Shown here one piece after another: positions 26,328 to 51,851 of a DNA stretch of 64,000 nucleotides (positions are counted from its first letter, which is position 1; each line of letters starts with the position of its first letter). The translations under genes and the position numbers were made by a program. The notes under the pieces are model-generated. The model saw only the letters and a list, made by a program, of their open reading frames with translations. It ran no database searches and had not been told where the DNA came from. This DNA comes from Craspedostauros australis (Eukaryota > Bacillariophyta > Bacillariophyceae > Mastogloiales > Achnanthaceae): positions 3,100,001 to 3,164,000 of the forward strand of contig JAMXDE010000005.1 of the NCBI GenBank assembly GCA_026770025.1. Reading direction: 5' to 3'.

Positions 26328-26874
26328 GTTGACTCCGACGCTTTGCGCCATTCCACGCTCGCAGGATCCTCGGTCGTCTCCACGTTCCAAGGATGTTGGT
26401 ACAATGATGACTTCCGACGCCTGCGCCCACGATCAACTTCTCCTTCTGTGGCTGGCCACGATCACGTTCAAGAGTATGTTCAAGTTCACGCTCAAGATCA
26501 CGTTCACGACCAAGTCAATGTTCAAGACTACGTTCATGCTGACGCCAAAGTTGATGGGACAATCACCGAGCGGTACCGTGGCAACAACATGAAATGAGAA
26601 ACATCGTGAAACAGCAATCAACGCAATGCCATGCACGCCGCGTGAAACAGAACAATGGACACCACCACCAACGATAATGAAGAAGACCACCAGCCTCATA
26701 AAAAGCAGACACAGATGCGAGCAAGCGACCACGATCATCCAAACAATCATTCAAATCACATGAAAAGCCCGTCGCATTGATCACATCTGAGCAACAAGCC
26801 GTTCCATCACGAAACACACCTGCTCCAGCAAGGTCTTCATCCTTCCACGCCTCCTTGCGCTCTTCGCCTCACCA

Positions 26875-28821: not shown

Positions 28822-28933
28822 GAGCATCGCTGTAAATTGGACAAGAACCAACCAACCACCCATCAAAGTAGTCTCGCTTGGCAGCTGTCAAGTGCTTCAC
28901 ATCCATCGTTGACATAAATCAGTCGTCACTATT

Positions 28934-29679: not shown

Positions 29680-29714
29680 ACTATTCTATTGTTCAGTGGA
29701 CTACAATTATTGCA

Positions 29715-32999: not shown

Positions 33000-33539
33000 A
33001 TGAAGCTCATCGCCACCACCACCCTCATCTCCATGATGGCATCGGCCTTCACTCCATTCGCTGACGCTGCTGGATACACCTGCGGTGTCCATGCCCACTT
33101 CGGTATCGACAGCGAAGTCGATCATGCCCACAAGCCAACCATCGAGGAGATCCAACTTCTCTCGTCGCATGTTCATGAAGACCTTCCATGATGTGCACCC
33201 AGACCTCTCCTTTGACAAGGTCGATCTCATGGACATCTTCGAAGAGAAGCGTCTGGTCGCCTCCATGAAGAAGGATGACGCCGCCGGCCTTCATGGAGCG
33301 TCCGCTGGTGTCACAACTGCCAACACAGTCAACACAGTCGGCGCTGTCGATGGTGAAGGCATGAACCGCCTCACTTGGCCTCATCAGCCCATCTTGTGGG
33401 ACTACAGCTTCGTGGCTGACATCATTTGTCCCTACTGCTTCTTCGATGATGACGACGATGACGACTTCTACGCTGCAAGTGCATCTTCGGTCGTGAAGTC
33501 GCTGGTGCATGGTGGCAACGCAAAGAAGGCCAACATCAA
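33000..33539 (+). pseudogene. Secreted-protein gene, 5' part, interrupted by a 17-kb retrotransposon
   Basis: The start at 33000 gives a clear signal peptide (MKLIATTTLISMMASAF, then TPFADAAGY). After about 55 codons the frame shifts by one base near 33165. The downstream frame continues MFMKTFHDVHPDLSFDKVDL, an aspartate run (FFDDDDDDDFY) and GGNAKKANI, and is then cut by the LTR at 33540. Position 50997 resumes in that same frame. The protein would be about 260 residues, secreted, with an acidic centre and Lys-Ala-Asn repeats. I do not recognise a family. The frameshift could also be an unrecognised tiny intron. The insertion alone inactivates this copy. Confidence 0.8.
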
Positions 33540-34220
33540 TGTTGGAAATCCGGGGTTAGTGTTAGTAAGAACTATTTGGTTGTTAGATCGTACTATTCAG
33601 AACTGTGAGCTCATTCTCTTCAGCTCCTTTGCCTTTCGTTTCTCATGTAGCATCTCCTGCAGCAGCATTGCGTTAGACTGTTGTATTCATGCATCTCATC
33701 ATCATGGATCATCGCTTGCATGCATGCGATCTCATCCGCAGGCATCCTTGTCATGCATATCGTCGTGCATATCCGAAGGCATTCTTGCCATGCACCTTGT
33801 CGTGCATATCCTTATTCTACATTCCCTGTGGTACGATTCCACAGTCTTGCGTTTCGCTCTTGATCTCCTGACACCAAACTTTACGATTGGTGTCATGATT
33901 GATGTCATGGTTGATGCCCTTTCTGAGTTGTTCTAGTCCGTGGCTGACACGTGCCATGATCTCCAGATGGGGTGATCATCAAAGGGTCGGTCATCATCTT
34001 CCTTCACATGATTTAGATGTCGTGGCCTTTTCTTGGTTCACAGAGAACAGGCTTGTTTGCTTGGTAAGATTGAGGTCATTCCCGTGTGATTCGTGTCGTG
34101 GGTGGAATGGACAATATTCAATGGTGTGACGAATAATATCCAAAGGTGTGACAAATAATGTTGGGAGTTGCGGCAATCATAGGTATCTTTCCGACAGAGT
34201 CGTACCCTCGATTCCTGACA
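33540..34220 (-). repeat. 3' LTR of element 1
   Basis: 681 bp, with plus-strand ends TGTTGGAAATCC and ATTCCTGACA. The adjoining 34221-34230, read on the minus strand, is AATGGAAGGG, a fitting polypurine tract next to the 3' LTR. Confidence 0.93.
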
Positions 34221-34295
34221 CCCTTCCATTGTCGCATCGACAACACATCACTCACACTCTCACATTTTTCATAATTTCACGTCCTCTCCTCTCCG

Positions 34296-34541
34296 TCACT
34301 GATCCATTGTGGAACGCAGTTGGATGTAGTGATCCCTGTGTTTTTCGTTGATCTCCTTTTTGGTATTCTTCGTAAAGCCGTCTGCGATGTTGTCTTCAGA
34401 ACGCACAAATTTGGTTCTGGCCTCTCCATTTGTAATCAGTTCTCGAATGAAATGATGTCGGATGTCGATGTGCCGTGTCCTAGCGGATGTTGATGGGTTG
34501 GACGCGATGAAGATCGCTCCAACATTGTCAACCATCACATC
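34296..34541 (-). pseudogene. Element 1 Pol, C-terminal fragment (end of RNase H)
   Basis: Encodes MVDNVGAIFIASNPSTSART and then a HIDIRHHFIRE segment and EDNIADGFTKNTKKE, the C-terminal end of Copia RNase H. It is separated from the rest of Pol by the 780-bp solo LTR; across that insert the frame is continuous. Confidence 0.92.
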
Positions 34542-35321
34542 TGTTGGAAATCCGGGGTTATAGTAGTAGACTAATCTGTTATCAGTCTGTACCGTTTTTT
34601 AGAACTGTGAGCACAACATGCTCATCTCCTTTTGATTCCAATTCACAACAAGCGTGATCTGCAGTAGCCACCCGAGGTTACACCCTTTAGCTTGGCTCCT
34701 TTCGTCTGCATCTTCATGTTGCTTTCATCGTGGTTCATCGCTTGCTTAGCTGAGGATTGGAGAGCACCTACATTCGTCAAGTTCATACTCGTAGACCTGT
34801 AGGTACCTCTCCTTCGGTCTCCTGTCACCTCACTGGTCCCACTTCATTTCAGTTCCTCCCTCCGGTCATCTTGATGGTTGCCTTTGGATGCTTGGAACTT
34901 ATTGTCATCTGGATCGTGGTCTTGGGTGAATAGGGATCGCCTCTGTTTCGCTTTCTCACATTAGGTTCTCAGGGGTCCGTCGACTTGTTCAGATATATTG
35001 GTTGTCGCGCTCATTCGATTCACTCAGGGCTGGTGTGTTGCCATTGTCATAGATCTCTCGGTTCCCGACCGTTATCGGGACATGGCAGAGTAGGCCACTG
35101 GATGAGGGTGCTTGGATGTCGCATAAGACAGGTAAGGCCATTGGGCTGTCCGAGTGCAACTGGTCGATTGCTTAGGTTGCGGTTTGTCTGGGAGATGCTA
35201 TTGGGGGTTGCGGCAATCATGGGTATCTTTGCACATAATATCATTTCAGTTCCAGTCAGTCCTCATGGGAGCTGCGGTAGAACATGGTATCTTTGCAAAG
35301 TCGTACCCCCGATTCCTGACA
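34542..35321. mobile_element. Solo LTR inserted in the Pol gene of element 1
   Basis: 780 bp, beginning TGTTGGAAATCCGGGGTTA and ending ATTCCTGACA, thus related to but distinct from the LTRs of its host. CACATC flanks both sides (34536-34541 and 35322-35327). Removing it with one flank copy rejoins ADV to MVDNVG in the RNase H domain in frame. Confidence 0.94.
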
Positions 35322-38300
35322 CACATCTGCCGGCTTGTGCATCCTCAGTCCGATGTCACTCATCAATTGTGTTACGAAGCGAATTTCCTTTCCTGCCTCC
35401 GACAGGGCGACGTACTCTGCTTCCGTCGAGCTGAGTGTTACGCTCCGTTGTGCCTTTGATCTCCATATGATCGGCACTCCTTGTAGTAGGACGATGTGCC
35501 CTCCTACGCTGATGCGATTGTCCTTGTCACCTGCGAATTCGCTGTCAGTGTATATTGCAATCTTCCATGCATCTTGGGTCAGTGGACTTGGTTTCATCTT
35601 CAGTCCATACTCTCTCGTGTCCCATACGAACTTCATGACTCGAAGCATTTCCTTGTATGCTGCGGCTGTTGGTCCATCCAACACCTTGGTCAGTTTTCGC
35701 ACTGCATTGGCGATGTCGGGTCGAGAGTGTTTCACCAGGTATAGCAGCATACCTACTCCGCTTCGGTATCTGCTGTGTCGCTGCTTGTCCACTTTGGGTG
35801 CATCGCTTTGCCTTTGGATGCCTTGCCCTGGTGTCCCAGGCGTTCCGTATCGTTGCAGCTTCACCACATCGCTTCCGAACGTATCGATGATGTTCTTTAG
35901 GATGTGTGGTTGGTTCACCCAACAGTTCGTCTTGTCGCGGTTGAAGATGATCTTGCAGCTCAGGTAGTCTTCAAGATCTTCCTCCACTTTGACACCGAAT
36001 CGTTCCGCTCGGATATCCTTCACGAGCTTCTTCAATTCCTGCTCCTCTCCGATGCAGAGGCAATCGTCCACATAGGTGCCGATCAGTAGCAGTCTCCCTT
36101 CCTGATTCCGAATCAGTAGGCAAGGGTCCACCTCGCTCTGTCTGAACCCCAATTTGAATAGGATGTCGACGAGCTTCTTGTTCCATTGTCTCGCGCTCTG
36201 CACGAGTCCGTAGATGGTTTTCTTGAGCAGCAGGCATTCATCGGTTTCGTGTTTCATGCCTTTCGGGCATTGCATGTAGATCTCTTCGTCGAGGTCTCCA
36301 TGCAAGAATGCTGTCTCAAAGTCGATGATGATGCTGTCTAGCTTCAGTATCATCTTCATGGTGAGCATGATACGGTAGGTTGCATCATGTATCACCGGTG
36401 CGTGGTGCGCTGAGAAGTCGACTCCTGCGATCTGCGAGTATCCGCATGCCACGAGTCTGGCGTGGAATACCCCGTTTCTCTTTTCCTTGAAAACCCATTT
36501 GGTCTTCACACACCGCCGATCCTTCGGCATCTGGTCCTTCTTGATTTTCTCCCATACTTTCCTTCTGGCCATATCATAGAACTCTTTGTTGATAGCTTCG
36601 CGCCATTTCTTTCTTTTGTTGGGATCTGCATGGTCCCAGCAGTCTTCGAATGTGGTGGGGTCTAGTAGCATTGCGACATTCGCGTATTCTGCCCCTTCCT
36701 CATTTCTTTCTTCTTTCAATGCCTGGTCCGCAGCGATGATGTCATCTAGTCTCATCATTCCATGAGGTGTGTCTATCATCGTACCTGCAATATCTCTGTT
36801 GAATATTGACCCGTCTGCGTGGAAGTCGGGTCCTCCTGTTTCCGGTGGAGTTGTGATGGTCTCTTCAGGTGTCACATATCCCTCGCTGTCATTAGGTTCT
36901 GACTCATCACTTGATCCGAGATCTCGCTCCTCCTCTGGGATTGGGTCATTGTTGTACCCGGCGAGAGCGCTCAGCATCCTTGGTATGTGTGTTACAGGTT
37001 CTGCGACAGGAGTGTCTTTGGGCTCGTTCTCGGCCGCTTCGTCTACTTTCCCCTCGTCGTCCCTTCCGAATTCACCGTCGTTCTCTTCGTTCGATTCATT
37101 ATCCCCTTGGGCAGGGAGCAAGCTATCTTGCCCTCGCGCAGCGTCATCAGTATCTTCTATTTCTTCGGCTCTGCTGCTGCAATCCGCGTCGTTGGCCTCC
37201 ATGCTCTTGATGGTCTCCGATCGTCGCTCCCAAGTTGTCCTCGTAGCTCGGGTGTTCATACCCGACGTGGAGTCGTCATCTTCTAGATCTATCAGCACAG
37301 ATCTGTTGGCGTTCTCGATACCTCTGAATTGCCCGTATGACTGATTCATCCATGTCACGTCTCTCGTGATTAGGATCTTGGTTGTTGCGAGATTCAGCAT
37401 TCGATATACTCCCTTTGCGTGCGATTGGCCGTAGCCGACGAACATGGCTGGTCTGGATCTATCGTCCAGCTTAGCCTTTATCGTACGACCGCCGATGTAC
37501 ACCATGCCTATTTCTCTGAATTTTTGTAATCCATCCACGAATGTTGGGATGCGGTTGTTGAAGAGAACACATGCTGGTTCTCTTGTCTTTGTCTCGATAA
37601 TATTTTCGAGCTGAGTCGCGGTTCGGGCTGCCTCCGCCCACAATTTTCCACGCACTGTTCTCGGTAGATGCGTTTGGTTGAGCATGGAGCGGACTTTCCC
37701 GTACAACGTCGCAAATTTTCTTTCCACGCGACCGTTCTGTTGGGGAGTGGAGGCTGCAGTATATTCGAATGTTGGACCGAACCCTGCGTTGAGAAGCTGT
37801 TTTTCCGCGGCATAATTCTCTCCCGCGTTGTCACATCTGATATTTTTCACATGTGCCTGTTGGTTGGAGTGAAGCCATCGGAGGAGCGTGATCAGCTTTT
37901 CTCCGACTTCACTTTTCTCTTTCAAAAAGTAGCTCCAGCAGTAATCACTGTAATCATCGATGACAAGGAGCCAATATTTTCCTTGTCTGTAGCTGTGCGT
38001 TTGAACACTCGATGTGTCAATGAACAACCGCTCACCAATTTCCTTTGCTCGGCGCTGCAGGTGTTTTGTCATTGACTTCTGCTTCTGTTTTCCAATTGCG
38101 CAGTCAATGCATGCATGCAACTTGCCTGTGACATTCCAACCGTATCGTCCCGCTGTGCGAGAGATCGTGTAAGTGTCAACATGGCCTAACATTTTATGAA
38201 TTTGGTTGATGTCCACCGCGGACCTGGTGGACATGCCAACATTGGCTTGGTCTTCATGGGGAGGGGCGCTGATCATGTTCACTCCACTCACGAAACCGCT

Positions 38301-39738
38301 ATGGGTTGCCATGAGTCTGTCGAACGTGATTCATTGCCCGCGCTTCTCCAAGCTCATCACAACACCTTGGCTGCTGATGTCGAAGCCGTTCTCGAGAGCT
38401 TTGTTGATGCTCAAGAGGTTCACCCACAGGTTGGGCACGAACTTCACTTGCTTGAGCACGATGGTAGCTTGGTTCCCGTTCTTCTGCATCACGACCATGC
38501 GTTTATCGCCAACCTTTGTTGCCTTGAGGTATCGGCCGCTGCCGATCTTGATGGAGTGGTTGGCCACTCGCACGTTAATCATTCCCTCTTCGCTATTGGT
38601 GAGGTGGCATGAGGCACCGGAATCACCCAGCCAAGTGTTTGCTTCGTGGTGGTCGGGGGCGATGGTGTGGCGGAGTGCGCTTGCATCGTCGAGGTCACCG
38701 ATCACCATGGCCATGTCTGGTTGATTGTCTTGGTGGTCACCGATCATCATGGCCATGTCTGGTTGAGCATCGGCCGCTCGGTAGACGGGGAGCTGATTGA
38801 ACTCCTCTGGGTCTCGGACTCCTTGGTCACTTGGATGATGCATCCACATCAGCATCTCTGCGGCATGCTGAACCAGGCTGTCGATGAGCCCTCTGTGGAT
38901 GGGTGGCAAGTTGAGCTCCTCAAGTCTTGCGTTGATGTGTTGCACGGCTTGCACCAGTTGCATTGGCGTGAACACGTCGATGCGGTGCATCATGTAGTAG
39001 AGCGTGCGAGGGTTCAGGCTTTCTCCTCCTCCTTCAGTGTACGCGTGCGCCGCGTCGCAGCACAGTAGGGCGAGCTCAGAGCGCACTTCGTCAGCAACCA
39101 TCATGTTGCTGAGAGAGTATCTCATTGCGACATGCAAAGGTCCTGCAGTCCAGAGCTTCTGGCGGCACGTCATGATGTCTTGGATCGTTGTTGGCGCCGC
39201 CCTTGCAGGGGGGTTTGCCAGTTGGATGAGGAACGGCGAGTTACGGCAGGTCTTGCACATGGCGTAGAGAGGGCCGCGCTGAAAGCACAGCGGGCACCAT
39301 CCTGCGGTGCTCCCTCCGTTGCGAGACGGCTCTTCGATCATTCGATCGACCAGAGTCCTTGGTTCGGTTCGAGAGTAGATGGTGGAGGTGACGCGATGGT
39401 CGACTCCAGGCATCGCTACTTCATTCTCCATGATGTCTCCGACGTTGAGGGGTTCATCCTCGTAGACGATCCCTTCGAAGAGATTGTCTTCGTCGGTGTA
39501 ATCGTCTTCATCGCTTGATGGGAATTGCTCGCGGTTGATAGTCTCAACTGCAGCAACTGGGGGCCCGTAGTATCCGTACACACTTGGGGTGTGGGCCTCT
39601 CGTTCCTCTTCAGAGTACTCGTCCTCTTCTTCGAGGTCGAGTCCGGTCATGTCTTCGTCGGTGGTTGCGAGGGCCATGTCGTTGATGAACGACTCGTAGT
39701 GCGCCATATTGGTGGTGTTGATTGTTTGGTTTTTCTTG
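35322..39738 (-). pseudogene. Element 1 Gag-Pol, middle part: Gag tail, protease, integrase, reverse transcriptase, RNase H
   Basis: Reads from 39738 through the C-terminal Gag region, a cysteine cluster (WCPLCFQRGPLYAMCKTC), the aspartic protease motif WLGDSGASCHLTN, an in-frame TGA at 38331-38333, the integrase zinc segment (HKMLGHVDTYTISR, then ACIDCAIGK), the integrase core (RLFIDTSS, IRCDNAGENY, TPQQNGRVERKF), the reverse transcriptase with YVDDCLCIG, and RNase H (IAIYTDSEFAGDKDN, LSSTEAEYVALSEA). The TGA sits where Copia proteins usually have a basic residue before ITFDRLMATHSGF, so it is probably a CGA-to-TGA mutation. Apart from that stop, the frame is open for 4.4 kb. The sequence encodes all the catalytic motifs. 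Confidence 0.93.
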
Positions 39739-39743
39739 ATGTT

Positions 39744-40430
39744 AGTTAGGATTCGTGCGTAGGCGTCGCGAATCGGTGGAGAATGCCTCGTGAATCTGCC
39801 GGCTTCGGGATAGCCGTGTGATGCAGTTCAAGAGAGGTGTGCTGTTTGAATAGTTATAACTTGTAACGATGAGAAGTAGAGTGCTTTGTAGCTAATCCTT
39901 GTCCGTTATTATGAGTTAGCTTATTGGTGTTAGTAGGGTGAAGAAACGATGCCACACAACTTGGCGAGACCCTGCACTGATGCACTTGATTCAGTGCAAC
40001 AGAGTAGACAGTCAATACAGTACCTTGCTCTCCGCACATGTAGTTACACTGCAGTGTAGGTCATGACAATCAGTGGTGACGGTCATGAAGCAGTGGCTGT
40101 GGCTGAAGCTGACACTCGGATTCCATTGCTTGAGTTGAAGCAAGTTGGATACGCATGCTGAGACCACGGTGGTAGTGTGGTGGTCATCAGCAATGAAGGA
40201 ATCGAGATAAGTTTTAGTAAGGAGGATCTGAAGAGCATATAGTTCCCAGGTGGGGTGTGAGTCAGGTCGGTCAGGTTTGAGTCATGATGGATTCGTGAAT
40301 GGAGGAGAGAAAGGAGGAGAAAAAGGTTTGGTGGTCAATCAAGTCGGAAGATTTCGCGCCAAAACAGGAATTTCTCCCATCGGGTTGATACCGTGTTCGG
40401 TACTAGTCTGTCCCTCATTGAATCTCAACT
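39744..40430 (-). repeat. 3' LTR of element 2
   Basis: 687 bp, matching 48207-48893 with no difference noticed by eye. Equal length supports a recent insertion. Confidence 0.95.
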
Positions 40431-40441
40431 CTCCCTCTCAG
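40431..40441 (-). promoter_or_regulatory. Polypurine tract of element 2
   Basis: Minus strand reads TGAGAGGGAG directly before the 3' LTR, the expected primer position for plus-strand DNA synthesis. Confidence 0.65.
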
Positions 40442-40513
40442 TGTTGGGTCGTGATTGGAGTTGTGGTATCGATGAAAACTTCATCCTTCGTTGTTGTTTG
40501 TTGTTGTTGGTTA

Positions 40514-43500
40514 TTACCAACCCATGATCTTGAATCGCAGGTATTCGAAGACTGCGATGGACAGTCCTTTGGTGAAGATGTCGGCCAGTTGCTCCGGTGT
40601 TGCGATGTGCTGGATGTAGATGAACCCTGCCTTGACCCAGTACCAAAAGAAGTGCCACTTAGTCAGGAAGTGCTTGGTGCGCGCGGTTGGTTGATGATTG
40701 GTAGCAAGGGAAATGCAGGCTTGGTTGTCCTCAAACACCGTGCACTGGAGGTTGGTGTGCAGTGGCATGGTGGTGCCGGCATTGTTGATGACTTGGCGGA
40801 TGAGCTGTTGAATGGGAATCAGCGTGCGCATTGCGAGAGAGAGAGCGGCGTACTCGGACTCCATCGTAGATAGAGCAATCTCAGTTTGGAGTTTGGACTT
40901 CCAAATGAGGGGGCACCCTCCCAGCGTAATGAGGTAGCCAGTGCGCGACTTGACTGAGACGGGGTCCTTGCTGTCTTCTCGTCCGTAGAGTCCTGCGAAG
41001 TCTGCATCCACGTAGCACTTGAGATCAAGCTGCCCGGTGGGACGCACGATGGTACCCTTGTCCTCAGTGTGCTTGAGATAGCGCATGATGCGCTTGACGG
41101 CCTTGGCGTGTGAGCGGCGAGGGTCACTTCCGAAGCGAGCGACTTGGGAGACTGCGAATGCCAGGTCGGGGCGAGTGTTGGTCGTGAGATACAACAGCAT
41201 GCCGACGACGGAGCGGTAGTTCCATGGTTCGTTCATGGGAGGCTCATGCTTGCATTGTCCCAGTGCGAGCTGCGTAGTTGGTACGGGGCACGGACTGCAG
41301 TTCGTCATCTTCGTAGTGGCGAGGATCTTCTTGATTAGTCCTGGTTGGCGGAGATGGACCGTGTCTGCTTTTGGATCACGGCTGAGCTCGATTCCCAGGA
41401 ACTCGGTGAAGCTTCCTTCTTGGGTGAGCTCAAAGCCGAGGTCGCGCATTGATTTGATGAAGTCGTCGGCGGCTTGCTTGGTCTTGGAGGCGATGCCCGC
41501 ATCGTCAACGTAGAGGACGATCATGATGTCCTTCTTGATGAACAAGCACTGCTCTTGGTCGCAGGCCTTGAAGCCGATCGTAGTGAGGGCTCGGATGAGG
41601 TGTTCATACCAGAGGCGAGGAGCAATCGTCAAGCCGTACAGGCTCTTGCGGAGCTTGAGGCAGGTGTCGGGACCCTTCGTTGATTTGAATCCACGAGGGA
41701 GATGAAGGTAGACTGGCTTGTGGATGGATGCTTGCACGAAAGCGTTCGTGAAGTCGATGGACGTTGTTGTCCAACCCATGACGATGGAAGTGCTGAGGAA
41801 GATGCGGACGGATGACCATGCGACGACTGGTGCGTAGGTGGAGGAGTCCTCTTGCATGAGGTCTCCACGGCAACACCAGCGTCCCTTGTATTTCTTGATG
41901 GTTCCGTCGGGGAGGCGCTTGCGGCGAAAGACCCAGGTTCCTGGAAAGATGCGATCGTTCTTGATGTCGATCTTCTTCACTTCCTCCCACGTGCCCTTTT
42001 CCGTGAGATCTCGAATCTCCTTTTCGGCGGCTTGCATCCACTCGTCTTTGTTGTCGTCGCGAATGGCTTCGTCGAAGGAGAGAGTATCCGGGTCGGTGTT
42101 GGATGCCTTGTACACCGAGGTGCGTTCGGCGATCTCCAAGTCGCCACCTGCGGCAAAGTAGCTGATCATGCGATTATCGACGTAGGTGGGGTAGTTTGTT
42201 GCATCCTTCTGTGGCTCGATGATTGCGACAGAGTAGGCATGCTGTTCGATGTTCGCCCATGTAGTTGGTGGAATGCACTTCGCTGTGTCGAGGATGAACG
42301 ACGGGTTGATGTCGAGCGTGGATGACGAGTCGATGTCGAGCATGGATCCTTTGTTGGCGGAGCGAGTCGCTGGGGCCGAAGTGAGTGGCGCCGTGTTCGA
42401 CTCAATCATGCCTTGGACGAATTGCTCAATCTCGTATTCGCTTGGAAGTGGCCACGGTCCTGGTCGGATCGTCGTCACTTGGCGACGGAGTAGCTCGAAT
42501 GCGAGACGGTAATGATGATTTTCGATCATCGCATTCCACACGGAGCGAGTCCTTTGGACGAACGCTTCTGCGTTGTACGCAGATTTGGGTGGAAGGTACC
42601 CTTGGTTCATCAAATGTTCGGGGTCTTGGTAGTACCATGGCCCTGATTTGGCCTTGGACATGAAGTCGAGAGCGTCGAAGTGGGGTTCCATCGTGCCAGT
42701 ACTGATGAAGGTGCTCAGCTTCTCCACGAATTGCTCGACGGCGTGGTCAGTGGCCAGTCGGAGGAGGTCTTCGTTGAGAAAGACGCTGTTGAGGTCTTTC
42801 TCGAAATGGTCCTCCATGTCCGAGTGAAAGTTGTTGTACGTCTCCTGAAATGGAGTCGCTCCTTCCTCGGTCATGTTGTCGGGGTCCGGTTGCCACCAGT
42901 CAGCCATGTTGATGCTTGCTTCTTCTACTTCAGCCGCCTTTGGAGCGAACGTTGGGAGGACGACGTTGGTTGGCTGTGGATTCAAGGTGTTGAATCGACC
43001 TCGGAGTCTGCGCAACAAGTAGTGAGCGTCCACCTTGAATTGGTGTAGATCGATGGAGAGAGAGTCGCTACCTTTGCGTTGGAGAGGTTCGATTGTATGT
43101 AAGCAATCGACGATAGCTTGTGAGAATGTGATGATCGATGATGAGTCGGGGTGCAGTTCCCTGGGTGTTGCGGCCTGTTCGATCTCTTCCAAGGTAGCTA
43201 CTGCAGGGCAGAAGTAGTAATCATCGGTGTCTTCGTCGTCCAGCCAGGCTGCTTTGCCTCCCATACGTGCGTACGTGAATCGCTTTGGTTGTTTGCGAAT
43301 TCTCGTGCTTTGAGGTCTTTCTGGCGTTGGCTCAGACTTAGGTATCATGGGTGGCGTGGAGCTCGTCTGAATTGGCGTCGGAGCTGGAAGTGGTAATGGA
43401 GTTGCTAATTCCAATGTTGGTGATTCTCGGAGAGGTGAGCTCAATTGCGGTTGAAGTGTTCGCTGATCCGGTGACTCTATAGTAGAGTCAGGTACCGGGG

Positions 43501-46500
43501 ACTCATCGGGAGCTCCCTCTGTCGAGGACATTTGCCTGTTGGCTCCCTCTGAAACTGGCATCGGAGGGGCGAGAGCTTCACTCATGAGATCGGGGATCTG
43601 TTGTGTCATTGGTTGCGACCCTTTCGCCAATACCTGTGGCGTTCTTTCACGGATGGTTTGTTGGTTTCGCGTATCAAAACTCGGTGGTGGAGTGTTATCG
43701 TCGTTGCGTTGTAACCGGTTGTGGTCTCGCGTGTCTGATGCGAAGATGTCGTCCTGCTCCATTGATTCCACATCGTCGTCATCGAATGGATATTGGAAGG
43801 TGGTGTCACCAAACATGCGAGTCCATTCTTCCGATTGATAGCTTGGAAGTTGCTTCAAGTCGGTAGCAATCGTTGCGAACCAGTCATCGAACACGACGTG
43901 GAACTGAGGGGTGATTGAACCTGTCCGTGGTGATAGGACTAGAGGTACGGTTGAAGCATGCTTCGTAGAGAGACCCATGTTCACGTATCTCTCTCCTCTT
44001 GGTTCCCATCGGGGTATCTTGCGTCCATCGGCCAGCGCTTTGTTAAGGACATAGACTGGACTGCCCCATACGTGCAGGTTATGAAGTTGCTTGAGGGGAA
44101 GACGGATGCGTGATAGAACATCGTAGGGTGTGAGACCGGTGGCGGGATTAGGCACGCGATTGTAGATGTACGCGGCGTGTACGACGGCCATTGGCCATAG
44201 TTGAGCATCAAACATCGTTGGCCAGTGGATGCTTTGATGCATCATCATGGTTCGGGCCATTGAGACAATTGTTCGAATGCTTCGCTCGGCTATTCCGTTG
44301 TGGTGATGTGCGCCGACACCTGCGAATCGATGGACTTGATGGAAGATTTCAAGGTGTTTGGAGTATTCGGGTGAGGTGAAGGTGGTGGCGTTGTCTGATA
44401 GATACGATCGTACGGGGACTCCAACATCACGACACATCAGTTCGAACCGTTCCTTGGCTTCGAGGGTGGCGTGCGTGGTTAGCGCTGCCACAGGTTCCAC
44501 GTGAATGTATCCTGATGCGTGATCGACAAAGATGGCTCCGCCTTTGTACATTTCGTTTGGATCGCCTTTGCCTCGTCCTGAGAAGAGGCGTCCTGGCGTT
44601 CGACCGACGAAGTGGTCCACTGATACTTGTTGTCCAGGGAACAAGTGATCGGTGCGCAAAACTCCTTGTTTGTCACGGACGACATGTTGAGTTATTCCTG
44701 GGGAAGGGCGACGGTGCAGCTTTCCGAATTGGCATGCAGCGCAAAGCGGGAGGCTTGTGACCCTTGCCGCAGCTGTGTGCATCTTTCTAGACGATTCTGA
44801 CCCGGTGAGAGTACCCGAACGCAGCAGGAACTTCACTCGACTGAAGGATAAATGTCCGAGACGATAGTGCCACCGAAGAAGTTCCTTTTGCGGTTGGGTG
44901 AGGTTCACGTTGTGGTCCGACACGGTGGAGACGATGGAAGTTAGTGCAGCTGGCACGTCATGGATGTTGTCGGCACTGTAGCCGACTGATGTTGGTAGCC
45001 TTGTGGACTTCTTGTAATTCGCTACGATTGCGTTGCGATCGTCGTTTCCCAGGATTCCGCTGAGTTTGCAGGAGGATTTGTTGAAAACGATCGTTTCGCC
45101 CTGATACTCTTCAAGGAGACTGGAAGTGCTGATTAGCTTGACCTTTGATTCGGGAACATGGAAAGCAGGCAGTCGCAATTTGCGAGGGCTTCCAGTTACA
45201 TCAAGGACATACCATTCGACGGTTCCCAACGCATTCACTTGGATTTTCTTGAGGAATCCGTTGAGAAAGGTCGGTCTTGGTGGAGGACTTGGAGTAGAAC
45301 AGAAATCGTTGAGGTCATTTGTCACAGAAATTGATGCTCCGCTGTCCCAAACGAGTTCGAATGGAGCATCGGGTGAGAGATAACTCTCAGCTTTAGCTGG
45401 AGATGCGAAAGCATTGCGATTGGAGAAGAAGGAGGCTAGACCTTGCAGAGTGAGTAGTGCGGGCATGTCATTGTCACATTGTTGCTTTTGACTTCGATCA
45501 TACATCAAGTCAATTCCGCGAGTTGGGTACAGGCTCCAGAGATTTCGTGAGATGGATGAGGTGCGACCTTCTTGGCGGGGCAATTTTGCTGTCGTGGGTG
45601 TTTGGTTTTTACCATAAGTGGAATTTTTCGATTGGTTCCAGTGACGACGTTTTGATCTGTGATTGCGAGTTTTGGTCCGAGCCTGGGGACGCCACACACG
45701 TTTTGTTCGTGGGGAGTTCCCTTTCGACACGTTCACGGGTTTGGGTCCATCTGGGTCGAGACTTTCCATTACGAGATCGTAGAGACTGCGTTTCACGGCT
45801 CCATTGAAGTGTGTTGGACGTTTATGCACTTGCTTGTACCGTTCTTTGACTCGTGCCTTGTTGTAGACTAGATCAGCAGAGTTGATTGAGTCAGGTCTTC
45901 GTGGTACGTTCGTGTGGAGGAGTAGTAGAGTTACGGCAATTAGCATCCAGGCATTTGCTGCCGCGATGTACCACCCATACTCTACTCCGATAGTGATGAC
46001 TTGGAGTGAGGCGAAGAGGAGAACCATTCCAACGATGCTACCGAAGTAGTTGAAGGAGGTGAAGAGGTTCCAGACGAGAGACCACCAGGTGTCTTCGTCT
46101 TGACTGGAGGCGGCTGTGAAGCATGTCCACGCAGCCATGTCAATGGAGAGGTTGTCCTGTTTGGGAGCTTGCTTGCCCTTTGCCTTCGCCTTGAACTTGA
46201 AGTTGTCCTGATGACTCTCAGTGTTGTGCGAGAGACGCCAGCGGCGGCACTTGGCGCACCACATGAAAGTCTTGTCGTTGACAAGCTTGCGCTGTGGTTC
46301 ACCGGGCTTGGGAGCTTTGGACGACCAGCCCTGGCTGGCGTTGCGTTTGGCGTCGCGTTCCTTGGGCTTCTTGAAGTTGTTTCTCCTTCCGTCGTTCTTG
46401 GAGAAACCCTTGTGTTGCTCGAGAACGTTGGCGCTTGGATTCTGGACGGCGTTGTTGGCGTACGAGTACCTGGGCACGTTGCTGTCTCTGGTACGCCTGA

Positions 46501-47779
46501 TGGCATGCCAGCGATTTCCGCGCACTTCGTTTTCGTACGACGCCTCGGCCTTGTTGCAGATTGCCATCCATGTGAGATCTTTTGCGGCAAGCTGGGGGCG
46601 AGCGTACTCGTACGTGAAGACGGGGAGACGCATGAGGATTTCCTCAAGGTTATCCTTCATCACATAGAGAGGACGTCGGTACTGTTCACCAGACCGGATC
46701 TGTCCTCCAGCCTGCAGGAAGGCGTCGAGGATCGTTCGGAGGAGACGAAGGTCGAAGCGACCGGCGTCGTCGAGGCGCTTGCAAAGAGCACGGAGGTGGA
46801 CTGCCATGAGACCAACGTTCTCGTTTGGAAAACGTCTGCAGTTGACTTCGCGGATCTTGGCTGCGAGGGCGTCTTGTTCATCCAAGGAGTTGGCCGAGTT
46901 GCTGTTCATGAACTCAACGAAGAGAGTGATGAAGTTATCGTGGAACTTCGGCTCGATTCGGTTCATGAGTTGGTCTTCGAGGGCTGGATCAAGACTGTCA
47001 CGGAAGAACGCTGAGGCTGTCTCGTTGTTCTGGACGTCGTAGTGATCCCACTTCAGATGGAACTCGTCGAAGTGCTTGGTGGCATCTTCAAGAGTGAAGG
47101 CGGCTGGTGAGTCCAAGACGCAAGTCATTCCTGACTCTGCGTTGGCGTCAGCGATGTACGCCATGGTGAGGAGTCCGGTTCTTGCCATGTGGTTTCGCAC
47201 CAGGCGAATGAACTGCTGGATGTTCCCTCCTTTCTTGAACTTGTCGGTGAGTCCTTGCTCTCGCTTGGACTGGTTGGTTGAGTCAGCACCGTTATGGAGG
47301 ATTCTCTGTTGTTGAGAGTTGGTCCACCTGGTGTGTGACTCGTCTTGGAGGCCCGTCCAATGCCCGTTCGGCGCGCCTGCGGTCCAGGGCACCCAGTTGC
47401 GTCCTTGCTTGAGGATACCTCCCATGATGGGAACGGTTGGTTTCCCAGAGAGGTCGTGGTCGTCGTCTTCGCTGTCCTCTTCTGACTTTCTGCTCTTCTT
47501 GGGCATGGGGGTTTCCATGTCGAAGATGCTGTCGCCGAGGAAGGACTGTTCCGTTCGAGGTCTTGTGTCGCCAGCGGAGCGGCTGCGCTCGAGACCGGGA
47601 CGGCTTGGGGTCGTGGTGGCTGTCGCCGCTGCTTGGGCAGTGGCTATGGCCGCGTTTGCTGCTTCTGCAGCGGCTTCGGCCGCCAACGTCGCCTGTGTGA
47701 GGCGAGCGTTCTCGACCGTGATCGCTTCGAGCTGCGCTTGCAGCTCTTCCAGCGTGGCAGGAGTTGTCTCTTCCGCCAT
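40514..47779 (-). CDS. Element 2 Gag-Pol polyprotein, with a hydrophobic membrane-like segment
   Basis: 2,421 residues in one intact frame. A coiled N-terminus (EELQAQLEAITVENARL) leads into a Gag region. A Cys/His cluster (WCAKCRRWRLSHNTESH) follows near residue 510. Residues about 563-625 contain two or three strongly hydrophobic segments (FGSIVGMVLLFASLQVITI and WYIAAANAWMLIAVTLLLL), unusual for a Copia polyprotein. The protease motif VWDSGAS lies near 810, the integrase zinc segment HYRLGHLSFS with CAACQFGK near 970-1030, and the integrase core with VSVDHFVG, YLSDNATTF and HHHNGIAERSI. After a long Pro/Ser-rich linker come the reverse transcriptase (FTNAFVQA, LYVDDAGIA near 2090) and RNase H (KCYVDADFAG, LSTMESEYAALS, EDNQACISLA). 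All catalytic residues are present. At 2,421 residues it is much longer than typical Copia proteins of about 1,400. Confidence 0.95.
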   Translation of the reverse strand: MAEETTPATLEELQAQLEAITVENARLTQATLAAEAAAEAANAAIATAQAAATATTTPSRPGLERSRSAGDTRPRTEQSFLGDSIFDMETPMPKKSRKSEEDSEDDDHDLSGKPTVPIMGGILKQGRNWVPWTAGAPNGHWTGLQDESHTRWTNSQQQRILHNGADSTNQSKREQGLTDKFKKGGNIQQFIRLVRNHMARTGLLTMAYIADANAESGMTCVLDSPAAFTLEDATKHFDEFHLKWDHYDVQNNETASAFFRDSLDPALEDQLMNRIEPKFHDNFITLFVEFMNSNSANSLDEQDALAAKIREVNCRRFPNENVGLMAVHLRALCKRLDDAGRFDLRLLRTILDAFLQAGGQIRSGEQYRRPLYVMKDNLEEILMRLPVFTYEYARPQLAAKDLTWMAICNKAEASYENEVRGNRWHAIRRTRDSNVPRYSYANNAVQNPSANVLEQHKGFSKNDGRRNNFKKPKERDAKRNASQGWSSKAPKPGEPQRKLVNDKTFMWCAKCRRWRLSHNTESHQDNFKFKAKAKGKQAPKQDNLSIDMAAWTCFTAASSQDEDTWWSLVWNLFTSFNYFGSIVGMVLLFASLQVITIGVEYGWYIAAANAWMLIAVTLLLLHTNVPRRPDSINSADLVYNKARVKERYKQVHKRPTHFNGAVKRSLYDLVMESLDPDGPKPVNVSKGNSPRTKRVWRPQARTKTRNHRSKRRHWNQSKNSTYGKNQTPTTAKLPRQEGRTSSISRNLWSLYPTRGIDLMYDRSQKQQCDNDMPALLTLQGLASFFSNRNAFASPAKAESYLSPDAPFELVWDSGASISVTNDLNDFCSTPSPPPRPTFLNGFLKKIQVNALGTVEWYVLDVTGSPRKLRLPAFHVPESKVKLISTSSLLEEYQGETIVFNKSSCKLSGILGNDDRNAIVANYKKSTRLPTSVGYSADNIHDVPAALTSIVSTVSDHNVNLTQPQKELLRWHYRLGHLSFSRVKFLLRSGTLTGSESSRKMHTAAARVTSLPLCAACQFGKLHRRPSPGITQHVVRDKQGVLRTDHLFPGQQVSVDHFVGRTPGRLFSGRGKGDPNEMYKGGAIFVDHASGYIHVEPVAALTTHATLEAKERFELMCRDVGVPVRSYLSDNATTFTSPEYSKHLEIFHQVHRFAGVGAHHHNGIAERSIRTIVSMARTMMMHQSIHWPTMFDAQLWPMAVVHAAYIYNRVPNPATGLTPYDVLSRIRLPLKQLHNLHVWGSPVYVLNKALADGRKIPRWEPRGERYVNMGLSTKHASTVPLVLSPRTGSITPQFHVVFDDWFATIATDLKQLPSYQSEEWTRMFGDTTFQYPFDDDDVESMEQDDIFASDTRDHNRLQRNDDNTPPPSFDTRNQQTIRERTPQVLAKGSQPMTQQIPDLMSEALAPPMPVSEGANRQMSSTEGAPDESPVPDSTIESPDQRTLQPQLSSPLRESPTLELATPLPLPAPTPIQTSSTPPMIPKSEPTPERPQSTRIRKQPKRFTYARMGGKAAWLDDEDTDDYYFCPAVATLEEIEQAATPRELHPDSSSIITFSQAIVDCLHTIEPLQRKGSDSLSIDLHQFKVDAHYLLRRLRGRFNTLNPQPTNVVLPTFAPKAAEVEEASINMADWWQPDPDNMTEEGATPFQETYNNFHSDMEDHFEKDLNSVFLNEDLLRLATDHAVEQFVEKLSTFISTGTMEPHFDALDFMSKAKSGPWYYQDPEHLMNQGYLPPKSAYNAEAFVQRTRSVWNAMIENHHYRLAFELLRRQVTTIRPGPWPLPSEYEIEQFVQGMIESNTAPLTSAPATRSANKGSMLDIDSSSTLDINPSFILDTAKCIPPTTWANIEQHAYSVAIIEPQKDATNYPTYVDNRMISYFAAGGDLEIAERTSVYKASNTDPDTLSFDEAIRDDNKDEWMQAAEKEIRDLTEKGTWEEVKKIDIKNDRIFPGTWVFRRKRLPDGTIKKYKGRWCCRGDLMQEDSSTYAPVVAWSSVRIFLSTSIVMGWTTTSIDFTNAFVQASIHKPVYLHLPRGFKSTKGPDTCLKLRKSLYGLTIAPRLWYEHLIRALTTIGFKACDQEQCLFIKKDIMIVLYVDDAGIASKTKQAADDFIKSMRDLGFELTQEGSFTEFLGIELSRDPKADTVHLRQPGLIKKILATTKMTNCSPCPVPTTQLALGQCKHEPPMNEPWNYRSVVGMLLYLTTNTRPDLAFAVSQVARFGSDPRRSHAKAVKRIMRYLKHTEDKGTIVRPTGQLDLKCYVDADFAGLYGREDSKDPVSVKSRTGYLITLGGCPLIWKSKLQTEIALSTMESEYAALSLAMRTLIPIQQLIRQVINNAGTTMPLHTNLQCTVFEDNQACISLATNHQPTARTKHFLTKWHFFWYWVKAGFIYIQHIATPEQLADIFTKGLSIAVFEYLRFKIMGW

Positions 47780-48206
47780 GATGGATGACGGGGACTTCTC
47801 GAATAGTCTTCGGACTTCGAGGGGATCGATCTGTTTGCCTTCTCTTGCTCTTGCTCGACTTCACTTCGTTGGGAAGGTGTGCACTGAAGTTCGATGCAGG
47901 CTTGGAGGGGCTCGCACTCGGTCGGCGAGTGCGGTTATTGCTTGCTTTGGCAGAGGCTACTGAAGTTCGACCTTGGGTCGCTTACCTTCAGCTGGGACTT
48001 TTGTCCTCTTGAGTGGCTCGGTTTTCGAGCGGTGGGGATCTGATTTCAGATCAGATGCATGCGGTGAGGACGTGGTCCTTGTTGGAAGCTCGGTCTTCGA
48101 GCTGTGCCTTTTGGCTTCGTCTCAGAGAGACTCTTGCGATCGGTTGGCAGAGGAAGATGCTCGGTGGAGTTGATAAGAGAGTATTTGGCAACCACTCGCA
48201 GCTACC

Positions 48207-48893
48207 AGTTAGGATTCGTGCGTAGGCGTCGCGAATCGGTGGAGAATGCCTCGTGAATCTGCCGGCTTCGGGATAGCCGTGTGATGCAGTTCAAGAGAGG
48301 TGTGCTGTTTGAATAGTTATAACTTGTAACGATGAGAAGTAGAGTGCTTTGTAGCTAATCCTTGTCCGTTATTATGAGTTAGCTTATTGGTGTTAGTAGG
48401 GTGAAGAAACGATGCCACACAACTTGGCGAGACCCTGCACTGATGCACTTGATTCAGTGCAACAGAGTAGACAGTCAATACAGTACCTTGCTCTCCGCAC
48501 ATGTAGTTACACTGCAGTGTAGGTCATGACAATCAGTGGTGACGGTCATGAAGCAGTGGCTGTGGCTGAAGCTGACACTCGGATTCCATTGCTTGAGTTG
48601 AAGCAAGTTGGATACGCATGCTGAGACCACGGTGGTAGTGTGGTGGTCATCAGCAATGAAGGAATCGAGATAAGTTTTAGTAAGGAGGATCTGAAGAGCA
48701 TATAGTTCCCAGGTGGGGTGTGAGTCAGGTCGGTCAGGTTTGAGTCATGATGGATTCGTGAATGGAGGAGAGAAAGGAGGAGAAAAAGGTTTGGTGGTCA
48801 ATCAAGTCGGAAGATTTCGCGCCAAAACAGGAATTTCTCCCATCGGGTTGATACCGTGTTCGGTACTAGTCTGTCCCTCATTGAATCTCAACT
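48207..48893 (-). repeat. 5' LTR of element 2
   Basis: 687 bp, plus-strand ends AGTTAGGATTCG and GAATCTCAACT; same as 39744-40430. Confidence 0.95.
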
Positions 48894-48898
48894 ATGTT

Positions 48899-50230
48899 CG
48901 TGATTTCGTCGGTTGTCACGATTCTTGGGTTGGTCACATTTTTGACCTCAACGGGGTCGTTTTCGACCTCGTTGGTGGGGAAACACACCAATTCCTCGTT
49001 GTTGACCGACTTGTCTTCGTCGGGCAACCACATTGATTCATCGGTCATCACGAGACCGATCTCGTCTTCTTCGTTGTTAGCGGGCATCCACATGGGTTCG
49101 TCTACCACGACGAACGCGGCGTTGTCTGCTGCGGCGTCTTCGGGTAGCCACATCGGTTCCTCGACCATCACGAGGGCGACGTCGTCTGTTCCCTCCATAC
49201 CGTCGGTGGCCACGTTGGTGGCGTCGGCTGCTCTCATCGCTGCCTTCAACTTGAAGCACTCGAGGATCTTGTGTCCCTTCTTACCGCAGTACTTGCAGTT
49301 TCCGTTGAACTTAGTCTTGTCCTCAGTATCACTTCTCTTGTTTTTCTTCGTGGGCTTGCCTCCTTTGTTCTTAGGCGCAGAGCGGCAGTCAGCCTTCTTG
49401 TGCCCGTAGGCGCCGCAGTTGCGGCAGTGGCCCTTGAAGCCACCAGTGGCGGCAAGAGTCATTTCTTCCTTGCTATGGTTCTCGCGCTTACTACCTCCTT
49501 GCTTGATGTGACGTGCGTCGTAGGTTGCACTCACTGCTTCGCGGATGTCTTCGATGGTCATCTGCTTTTCGATGTTCTCGAACTTGAGCTCGATGAGCTT
49601 CACATCCATTTCGTAGTCCCTTCCGAGAGCGTTGAGCACGAGCATGTGGTACTGCTCCATGTCCATGTTAACTCCCGCGTGCTTGAGGCGGTTACGGATC
49701 ACCTCCATTTCGGTGAGGAAGGTATCCGGATGTTCGCCTTTCTTCAATCGCATCCCGTTGAGTTGAGCCAACAACTTTGCCTTCATTGGCGCAGTGCGTT
49801 GCTCGTAGATGCGCTCGAGAGCCTTCCACGCCTTACGAGGGTCTCCTCCCTCGTAGATGTTGCTCTCGCATCCCAACACAGCCATGAAGGCGACATCGCC
49901 TTTGGTGGTTTCATGGTTGATTGCCATGGTCAGTTCTTCAAACGCGTACTTGGCCAGAGCCATCTTGTACTCCGCCTTCTCCTCGGGAGACATGGCAGAT
50001 AACTTCGAGACCTTAAGCTTCTTCTCTTCGCTCCCCACGATGGAGGCGAGAGGAGAGGGGTCAAAAGCCTCGGTCTTCACAATCACTTCACCCAAGTCCT
50101 TGAGATACAAGTCTCCGTAACCCTTGCGGTTGGCGCGGGCGAGGAACTTCGCACTCCAAGCTTTCCAGGAGGATCGCTTGCCGTCGAACATGATCATGTA
50201 ACGATCGGTCTTACCAAGGAAGGACGTCAT
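48899..50230 (-). pseudogene. Element 1 Gag, N-terminal part
   Basis: About 444 residues of Gag from the ATG at 50230. The capsid-like part opens with YMIMFDGKRSSWKAWSAKFL, as in the UBN2/DUF4219-type Gag of Copia elements. Two CCHC zinc knuckles follow: CRNCGAYGHKKADC near residue 275 and CKYCGKKGHKILEC near 320. After these come three imperfect repeats built on DEPMWLP. The frame is then cut by element 2; across element 2 it continues in phase at 39738. Confidence 0.93.
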
Positions 50231-50309
50231 GGTGATGATGGTGAGAGTCGTTTGTTGCTGTGTTGGTGATGATGGAAACGTAGGATTTCAATCGTAACGT
50301 TTCGAAACG

Positions 50310-50990
50310 TGTTGGAAATCCGGGGTTAGTGTTAGTAAGAACTAATTGGTTGTTAGATCGTACTATTCAGAACTGTGAGCTCATTCTCTTCAGCTCCTTT
50401 GCCTTTCGTTTCTCATGTAGCATCTCCTGCAGCAGCATTGCGTCAGACTGTTGTATTCATGCATCTCATCATCATGGATCATCGCTTGCATGCATGCGAT
50501 CTCATCCGCAGGCATCCTTGTCATGCATATCGTCGTGCATATCCGAAGGCATTCTTGCCATGCACCTTGTCGTGCATATCCTTATTCTACATTCCCTGCG
50601 GTACGATTCCACAGTCTTGCGTTTCGCTCTTGATCTCCTGACACCAAACTTTACGATTGGTGTCATGATTGATGTCATGGTTGATGCCCTTTCTGAGTTG
50701 TTCTAGTCCGTGGCTGACACGTGCCATGATCTCCAGATGGGGTGATCATCAAAGGGTCGGTCATCATCTTCCTTCACATGATTTAGATGTCGTGGCCTTT
50801 TCTTGGTTCACAGAGGACAGGCTTGTTTGCTTGGTAAGATTGAGGTCATTCCCGTGTGATTCGTGTCGTGGGTGGAATGGACAATATTCAATGGTGTGAC
50901 GAATAATATCCAAAGGTGTGACAAATAATGTTGGGAGTTGCGGCAATCATAGGTATCTTTCCGACAGAGTCGTACCCTCGATTCCTGACA
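50310..50990 (-). repeat. 5' LTR of element 1
   Basis: 681 bp, about four substitutions from 33540-34220. On the element side it abuts a perfect 14-bp palindrome, ACGTTTCGAAACGT (50297-50310). A usual primer-binding site starting TGG is not seen there. Confidence 0.93.
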
Positions 50991-50996
50991 CGTCAA

Positions 50997-51240
50997 AGCC
51001 AACGTCAAATCCAACGCCAAATCCAACGCCAAAGCCAACGCCAAAGCCAACGCCAAGGCGAAGAAGTCCGGCGCTGAGAAGTTCCAGGAGGCATTGACCG
51101 AGCACAAGGCTCACCGTTGGGAGACCGCATGGTGCGATGCGTTGAAGAATGGTCCGCACGAGTACTACCGCACCGTGGACAAGTGCGTGATCGCCCATGA
51201 CTCCTTCAGCTGCGTTGAGAAGGCGGATGCCGTCGCATGA
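50997..51240 (+). pseudogene. Secreted-protein gene, 3' part
   Basis: Continues the frame of 33535-33539 after removal of element 1 and one target copy. It encodes Lys-Ala-Asn repeats (KANVKSNAKSNAKANAKANA) and a C-terminal domain with EKFQEALTEHKAHRWETAW, CDALKNGPHEYYRTVDKC and DSFSCVEKADAVA, ending in TGA. Three cysteines suit a secreted protein. Family not recognised. Confidence 0.82.
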
Positions 51241-51851
51241 GAGTTGTAGATGAGTCCCTTCAATCGCATGATTGCACAGATCGCTAACTGCATGGCAGCC
51301 AATCGCCAATACTCTAGTAACAACACACAATCATATGGTACCCATACACATCTACTCGACTAGTGCTCAACGTGCCATTTCGTTTCATGACTCCAGCCAC
51401 ACAGCGCAGAGCGGACACTTGCGAAACAAGCAGGGATCGAGCAGCAAACCAAACAGAGCACGAAGGGCAACTTGTCCCTCTCCTGCATTGTCGATTCACT
51501 CATTGCTGAGGAGGAAGGGTGAACAGGAGAGTCACTTGTGTGCGATATAAGCGATGACAACCCACGTGGGCTTACTCGGAAGAACGGTCCTCCTTTCCGA
51601 AATTGCAGCGATGGCAAGGGTGATGAAGATGAGCAGGGAGAACTGGAATGCAGCGGTAGAGGCAGGCTATTGTGGAATGTGCGCTGTCTATTCACAACAC
51701 CCCATTACCATTCTTCATCGTGGCATGTATCGCCAACCTCTCTATTCGCTATCCTTGCATGTCCTTCATTGTGGTCGATGGCGCTGCCACGATTGTGCAG
51801 GATCCCCGCTTGATCTTTCACCACAAAACACGACTTCGGACTGATCGCTCC
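51241..51851. other. Intergenic region between the split gene and element 3
   Basis: Holds no recognisable gene. A 96-codon open frame at 51554-51844 has no known domain. The last five bases (GCTCC, 51847-51851) are the left target copy of element 3. Confidence 0.45.

What the first reader, a model, noticed from the sequence alone, without database searches (positions are those of the whole stretch)
33000..51240. Four-level nest: host gene, Copia element 1, then element 2 and a solo LTR inside it
Target-site copies mark each level: CATCAA/CGTCAA for element 1, ATGTT for element 2 and CACATC for the solo LTR. Subtracting element 2 and the solo LTR, each with one target copy, leaves 1,337 + 4,417 + 240 = 5,994 nt, exactly 1,998 codons in one frame. 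That exact closure is strong proof of both boundaries. The host-gene fragments also rejoin in frame across element 1. The nest gives an order of events: secreted-protein gene, then element 1, then the two inner insertions.
Basis: seen in the sequence. Interest (0 to 1): 0.85.

Follow-up and report, generated by a model that had tools for sequence, protein, structure and literature searches.

The report
Nested Copia retrotransposons in diatom gene
In a diatom genome, a jumping gene landed in a copy of a secreted-protein gene that was probably already broken, and two other jumping genes later landed inside it; the layout is real and can be put in time order, but such nests are an ordinary kind of genome structure.

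Summary
The nest is real. Element 1 (33540-50990, minus strand) lies in a small secreted-protein gene. Inside it lie element 2 (39744-48893) and a solo LTR (34542-35321). Elements 1 and 2 are Ty1/copia-type; the host is a diatom. Better proof than frame closure (1 in 9 by chance): other copies of element 1 run unbroken through the solo-LTR site (7 of 7 loci, overlap exactly 6 bp) and the element-2 site (3 of 7, overlap exactly 5 bp; the other four stop matching before the site). Five copies have LTR spacing 6829 = 16770-9155-786. Three host-gene paralogs are empty at the site.

Corrections: the nest is three levels deep, not four. Element 1's frame holds a TGA (38331-38333), sense in 19 of 19 other copies examined. 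The host copy was probably already frameshifted, a lesion shared with two paralogs.

Beyond the finding: element 2 belongs to a young burst: at least 19 copies with equal LTR spacing; 10 of 10 examined (from the best-matching hits) have identical LTRs and exact 5-bp duplications. Its ends are AGTT...AACT and its primer site matches tRNA-Met. A neighbouring Copia copy (51852-58456) lacks its 5' LTR and has U5-type ends on both sides.

The parts
33000..33539 (+). 5' part of the small secreted-protein gene (ATG 33000; frame 0 stops at 33189-33191 after a one-base frame change; the following frame is open to the junction)
   Evidence: same frame change in tandem paralogs L002 and L003; continuous frame in L004, L005, L006; L007 and L008 not read in the gene's orientation
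33534..33539 (.). Target-site copy of element 1, left (CATCAA, one change from the empty-site form)
   Evidence: paralogs read CGTCAA at this place
33540..50990 (-). Element 1: Ty1/copia-type LTR retrotransposon, 17,451 bp with inserts (7,510 bp by subtraction of lengths), disabled copy
33540..34220 (-). 3' LTR of element 1 (681 bp, TGTTGG...TGACA on the + strand)
50310..50990 (-). 5' LTR of element 1 (4 of 681 differ from the 3' LTR)
48894..50230 (-). Coding piece A of element 1 (ATG; Retrotran_gag_2, zinc-knuckle stretch below its cut-off)
35322..39738 (-). Coding piece B of element 1 (Pol_BBD, SH3_retrovirus, RVT_2)
38331..38333 (-). In-frame TGA inside piece B (19 of 19 other copies examined have a sense codon)
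34296..34535 (-). Coding piece C of element 1 (C-terminal end with stop)
39739..39743 (.). Target-site copy of element 2, left (ATGTT)
39744..48893 (-). Element 2: 9,150-bp Copia-type retrotransposon with LTRs 39744-40430 and 48207-48893 (687 bp, identical), ends AGTT...AACT
40514..47860 (-). Single uninterrupted reading frame of element 2 (2,448 codons from stop to stop; gag_pre-integrs, SH3_retrovirus below its cut-off, RVT_2)
48190..48206 (-). Primer-binding site of element 2: 17 nt (18 with the last LTR base) complementary to the 3' end of tRNA-Met(CAT) with CCA added
48894..48898 (.). Target-site copy of element 2, right (ATGTT)
34536..34541 (.). Target-site copy of the solo LTR, left (CACATC)
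34542..35321 (.). Solo LTR, 780 bp, of a different family from element 1 (best other copies 97%; many pairs elsewhere at spacing 6606)
35322..35327 (.). Target-site copy of the solo LTR, right (CACATC)
50991..50996 (.). Target-site copy of element 1, right (CGTCAA, the empty-site form)
50991..51240 (+). 3' part of the secreted-protein gene, ending in TGA at 51238-51240

Best explanation
A tandemly duplicated diatom gene for a small secreted protein (one of four copies within about 65 kb) first took a frameshift. It was then hit by Ty1/copia-type element 1, which integrated with a 6-bp target duplication. Element 1 in turn received two insertions by the ordinary LTR-retrotransposon cycle (transcription, tRNA-primed reverse transcription, integrase-made target duplication). 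One was a member of another family with a 6-bp duplication that later collapsed to a solo LTR by LTR-LTR recombination. The other was element 2, a member of a family in a very recent burst. Shown here: boundaries, target duplications, empty sites, uninterrupted relatives, LTR divergences, and a tRNA-Met primer match for element 2. Inferred: the frameshift preceded element 1, recombination made the solo LTR, and element 2 may still be mobile.
For: LTR pairs and target copies. Other copies of element 1 run continuously through the solo-LTR site with exactly 6 bp overlap (L046, L048, L049, L050, L052, L054, L062: 7 of 7 loci with inner sequence on that side; L046 and L049 look like duplicates of one another) and through the element-2 site with exactly 5 bp overlap in L047, L053 and L056 (3 of 7 loci with inner sequence on that side). 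LTR spacing is 6829 in five other copies (C28, C29, C3, C40, C9) and 6828 in two (C75, C47); the window gives 16770-9155-786 = 6829. Three tandem paralogs carry CGTCAA at the place and no element. Domain content and order are Copia-like. Element 2: 38 of 40 scored places form 19 pairs at exactly 8463 bp spacing, the window's included, and two are unpaired; 9 of 9 fetched pairs plus the window have exact 5-bp target duplications, and 0 LTR differences within each pair. Solo-LTR family: pairs elsewhere at spacing 6606. tRNA-Met primer match. The frameshift is shared with L002 and L003 and absent from L004, L005 and L006.
Against: At the element-2 site four of seven loci do not reach the junction: L051 and L055 stop matching at 48929, L061 at 49528, L057 at 50257, as deleted or rearranged copies would. 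Other same-contig neighbours have other spacings (6787, 7444, 3692 twice, 14204, 15979, 22689). Element 1's own target copies differ at 1 of 6 positions. For its family, exact 6-bp copies were seen at 6 of the 10 other places where both ends could be read: C35, C28, C14, L045, L058 and L059 yes; C47, C57, C7 and L060 no. The paralogs L002 and L003 have a second CGTCAA one 12-bp repeat further on, so the site lies in repeated sequence. The paralog L004 has the intact frame while copies on both sides do not, so gene conversion may have moved the frameshift. The element-2 copies examined are the best 40 of 341 candidates, so they lean towards the youngest; LTR identity can also be kept by gene conversion. 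No reads were available.
Confidence: 0.95

Rival explanations
1. Assembly artefact: a repeat-rich contig in which element 2 or the solo LTR was placed wrongly inside element 1.
For: The best-matching element-2 copies are nearly identical across the genome, which is what confuses assemblers; no reads could be examined.
Against: The 5-bp and 6-bp duplications match the sequence of uninterrupted relatives exactly, and each of the 9 fetched element-2 pairs has its own duplication. A mis-join would not make these.
Confidence: 0.03
2. Element 1's flanks come from a rearrangement between repeats, not a simple insertion; the CATCAA/CGTCAA likeness is the 12-bp coding repeat.
For: The site lies at an AAC-G/A-TC-AAA repeat that is longer in this copy than in L002 (four more 12-bp units, counted by eye); L002 and L003 hold CGTCAA twice, 12 bp apart; one mismatch in six.
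Against: Three empty paralogs read AACGTCAAAGCC once, with matching sequence on both sides of the place; the LTR termini are intact; 6 bp is the duplication length at 6 of 10 other family places.
Confidence: 0.03
3. Element 1 broke a working gene, and the frameshift reached this copy or its paralogs later by gene conversion.
For: L004, which lies between the window copy and L003/L002, has the intact frame, so the frameshift does not follow chromosomal order.
Against: The same extra base and neighbouring changes occur in three copies; 2-5% divergence among paralogs against 0.6% between element 1's LTRs puts the duplications before element 1.
Confidence: 0.15

Closest known systems
CoDi elements (Ty1/copia-like retrotransposons of diatoms; Maumus et al. 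2009, PMC2806351; abstract, first of three parts of the Results and search passages read)
   Same: Diatom host; Copia-type pol order; most selected elements with LTR pairs over 95% identical; TG/CA ends missing in 3 of 26 families, as in element 2 here; an inference there that an element inserted inside a CoDi5.3 element with target copy ACAAG.
   Different: The species here is unnamed; assignment to CoDi1-7 was not tested; element 2's frame (2,448 codons) is long. The terms 'nested' and 'solo' have 0 occurrences in that paper's main text.
TARE1 of tomato (PMC3701649; title and start of abstract seen in a search listing only)
   Same: Copia-like element with non-TG LTR ends that amplified massively and recently.
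   Different: Plant; LTRs start TA and are 194 bp; here AGTT...AACT and 687 bp.
Nested LTR retrotransposons of grasses such as maize (recalled, no call)
   Same: Younger elements inside older ones, dated by LTR divergence and target duplications.
   Different: Here only three levels, in a 74.8-Mb algal genome.

Membership tests
Ty1/copia LTR retrotransposon (element 1) | Two LTRs with a short target duplication | tested here: met
   681-bp LTRs; CATCAA/CGTCAA with one mismatch, compared with empty paralogs
Ty1/copia LTR retrotransposon (element 1) | Integrase part upstream of a Copia-type reverse transcriptase (RVT_2) | tested here: met
   Retrotran_gag_2, Pol_BBD, SH3_retrovirus, RVT_2 in that order over pieces searched apart
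Ty1/copia LTR retrotransposon (element 1) | tRNA primer-binding site next to the 5' LTR | not tested
   The inner border is the palindrome CGTTTCGAAACG; no tRNA search was made for it
Ty1/copia LTR retrotransposon (element 2) | LTR pair, target duplication, Copia-type pol order | tested here: met
   687-bp identical LTRs, ATGTT, gag_pre-integrs / SH3_retrovirus (below its cut-off) / RVT_2
Ty1/copia LTR retrotransposon (element 2) | tRNA-type primer-binding site | tested here: met
   17 nt plus the last LTR base complementary to the 3' end of tRNA-Met(CAT) with CCA added; the ATCGAAAC T-loop marks the initiator type (recalled)
Ty1/copia LTR retrotransposon (element 2) | LTRs bounded by TG...CA | tested here: not met
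   AGTT...AACT in the window and at 20 of 20 fetched LTRs; TG/CA is usual but not defining: 3 of 26 CoDi families lack it (PMC2806351)
Solo LTR | One LTR without internal part, flanked by one target duplication | tested here: met
   780 bp, CACATC on both sides; relatives hold the 6 bp once (7 of 7); two-LTR copies of the family exist
CoDi groups 1-7 | Clustering of the RT domain with published CoDi sequences | not tested
   CoDi sequences were not at hand; among the 120 listed RT hits for element 2 the few whose name states an organism are diatom proteins (Fragilaria, Mayamaea, Cylindrotheca)

The most novel reading that the evidence does not exclude
The third Copia copy next to the nest (51852-58456) is an integrated aberrant cDNA. 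Its 5' LTR is absent. In its place stands about 30 nt of the U5 end in inverted orientation, forming a hairpin-like end, and it comes from a different LTR subtype than the 3' LTR. It is flanked by an exact 5-bp target duplication (GCTCC). Read literally, reverse transcription folded back or switched strands and template near U5, and the integrase accepted a DNA with U5-type termini at both ends and no U3 end.
Probability: 0.5. Interest if true: 0.45.

Novelty: new member of a known kind. Interest (0 to 1): 0.3.

Why it matters
The locus is a clean stratigraphic record: paralog divergence of 2-5%, element-1 LTRs 0.6%, element-2 LTRs 0%. It ties an apparently very young Copia burst to exact insertion sites in a diatom, a group where retrotransposons are reported to respond to stress (PMC2806351, abstract). 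Element 2 offers a testable case of a Copia family with non-TG/CA ends that was recently, and may still be, mobile.

Tried and rejected
Misassembly and a chance target match were considered and set aside. A first guess that the host was an oomycete (literature search) was dropped. Host-gene function: Pfam gave nothing for the secreted protein, either the window frame or the intact paralog L004; it stays unknown. Literature: (diatom, solo LTR, Copia, nested) found 3 papers with all terms, none on diatoms by title; (self-primed or palindromic cDNA) found 1 paper (Penelope elements, listing only) and one search found 0. These searches do not show that such things are unpublished. Ages use the P. 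tricornutum rate of 4.77e-10 per site per generation (PMC6604790, passages read): element 1 about 6.2 million cell generations (1.7-15.8 million); element 2 under 4.6 million from this copy, under 0.46 million if 10 copies are pooled. The rate is borrowed from another diatom, the pooled copies come from the best-matching hits, and gene conversion would falsify the ages. Rows dropped: only 9 fully fetched pairs plus the window entered the pair count (L029 and L040 are unpaired; 9 further pairs were not fetched); I took 19 of the 39 other places; L007 and L008 were not turned to the gene's strand and were left out of the frame count; L050 and L057 show one outer end only and were left out of the 10 places.
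Full report
Organism. The window is part of a 74.8-Mb, 90-contig genome. An inositol-3-phosphate synthase encoded at 6807-8411 has diatom proteins (Trieres, Conticribra, Seminavis, Cyclotella) among its named hits in the 120 listed, with one labelled Alexandrium scaffold. The host is most likely a diatom, species unknown.

The nest. Element 1 occupies 33540-50990 on the minus strand, with 681-bp LTRs differing at 4 positions. Element 2 occupies 39744-48893 inside it, also on the minus strand, with identical 687-bp LTRs. A 780-bp solo LTR lies at 34542-35321. The target copies are ATGTT (5 bp, exact), CACATC (6 bp, exact) and CATCAA/CGTCAA (6 bp, one mismatch). Pfam matches on pieces searched apart give Retrotran_gag_2, Pol_BBD, SH3_retrovirus and RVT_2 for element 1, and gag_pre-integrs, SH3_retrovirus (below its cut-off) and RVT_2 for element 2. 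That is the Copia order.

Frame closure. Chance would give this 1 time in 9. The frame is not open: an in-frame TGA lies at 38331-38333. In 19 of 19 other copies fetched (of 39 other places listed, where 40 of 159 candidates were scored) that codon is sense. This copy is therefore disabled by a stop and two insertions. I did not excise and join the pieces.

Independent proof of the inner boundaries. Other copies of element 1 were compared piece by piece. At the solo-LTR site the two flanking pieces are adjacent and overlap by exactly 6 bp in 7 of 7 loci with inner sequence on that side (two of them, L046 and L049, look like duplicates of one another). At the element-2 site they overlap by exactly 5 bp in 3 of 7 such loci. 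The other four lose the match before the site: L051 and L055 at 48929, L061 at 49528 and L057 at 50257. The LTR spacing is 6829 in five other copies and 6828 in two; other same-contig neighbours show 6787, 7444, 3692 (twice), 14204, 15979 and 22689. The window's 16770 minus 9155 minus 786 is 6829.

The outer boundary. The host gene has tandem paralogs at C3:3165599, 3188492 and 3197268, part of a tandem segmental array. Three of three read AACGTCAAAGCC once where element 1 sits. L002 and L003 have a further CGTCAA in the next repeat unit. The right target copy thus has the empty-site form and the left copy has one change.

The host gene. In the window the frame that starts at the ATG (33000) stops at 33189-33191 because of a one-base frame change. 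The same change is in L002 and L003; L004, L005 and L006 keep one frame of about 230-240 codons; L007 and L008 were not read in the gene's orientation. Divergence from the three tandem paralogs is 4-5% on the left flank (L004 3.6% by mismatches, plus gaps) and 2-3% on the right, against 0.6% for element 1's LTRs. The duplications, and most simply the frameshift, are thus older than element 1. L004 lies between frameshifted copies, so gene conversion cannot be excluded. No Pfam family matches.

The solo LTR belongs to another family. Its best matches elsewhere are 97% identical and many come as pairs with spacing 6606. Its position inside element 1 makes it younger than element 1, but its order relative to element 2 is open.

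Element 2 is the youngest dated layer and part of a burst. Of 341 candidates 40 were scored; these 40 are 100% identical over the 431-bp query, 38 of them form 19 pairs spaced exactly 8463 (the window's included), and 2 are unpaired. They are the best hits, so older copies would not show in this list. In 9 of 9 fetched pairs, and in the window, the target duplication is an exact 5 bp. The two LTRs of each of these ten copies are identical, and between copies LTRs differ by 0.93 of 687 on average over 45 comparisons. Its LTRs begin AGTT and end AACT. The 17 nt inside the 5' LTR, and the last LTR base, are complementary to the 3' end of a tRNA-Met found in this genome. Its RT relatives among the 120 listed are 48-57% identical, and the few named by organism come from diatoms. 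Element 1's RT relatives are 50-60% identical in the listed 120. With a borrowed mutation rate (PMC6604790), element 1 dates to about 6.2 million cell generations and element 2 to less than 4.6 million.

A neighbour worth a look. At 51852-58456 lies another Copia-type element (frame 52066-57801, RVT_2) with an exact GCTCC duplication at 51847-51851 and 58457-58461. Seven pairs elsewhere show LTRs of about 630 bp. Here the 5' LTR is missing and about 30 nt of an inverted U5 end stands in its place. In 11 of 11 other copies fetched the inner border is preceded by U5 in normal orientation. The inverted stretch matches the U5 subtype of three of them (L088, L090, L091), while the 3' LTR has the subtype of the other eight. 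The inner border occurs at 78 places, the window's included; the inverted junction of this subtype occurs once. The simplest reading is a one-off aberrant cDNA that integrase inserted.

Verdict. A real, well-bounded, three-level Copia nest in a diatom gene that was probably already broken. An insertion of one element in another has been inferred in a diatom before (PMC2806351, passage) and nests are common elsewhere (recalled). The finding is sound but ordinary; the young element-2 burst and the odd neighbour are the parts of interest.

Noticed in passing
window 51852-58456: Copia-type element without a 5' LTR: about 30 nt of inverted U5 stands at its left end, exact GCTCC target duplication, U5 subtypes differ between its two ends; the inverted junction of this subtype was found once in the genome.
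   Followed up: partly
window 26323-33500 and 59919-64000; C3:3164001-3198000: Tandem segmental array (ankyrin-repeat gene plus secreted-protein gene); basal unit about 8.8 kb by the spacing of the last two host-gene copies, enlarged here by mobile elements.
   Followed up: partly
window 50298-50309: Directly inside element 1's 5' LTR stands the perfect palindrome CGTTTCGAAACG; its last ten bases are exact at 6 of 7 other 5' LTRs fetched and have one change at the seventh; no primer tRNA was sought for it.
   Followed up: no
G000:C57:12809-17181 and C7:2684348-2688720: Two places with element-1-type LTRs 3692 bp apart share the same outer flanks and lack a target duplication, which suggests a duplicated rearranged copy.
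   Followed up: no
window 40514-47860: Element 2's frame is 2,448 codons; many relatives listed in the protein search are also about 1,900-2,900 residues long; the first 977 residues, which include the gag part, have no Pfam match.
   Followed up: no
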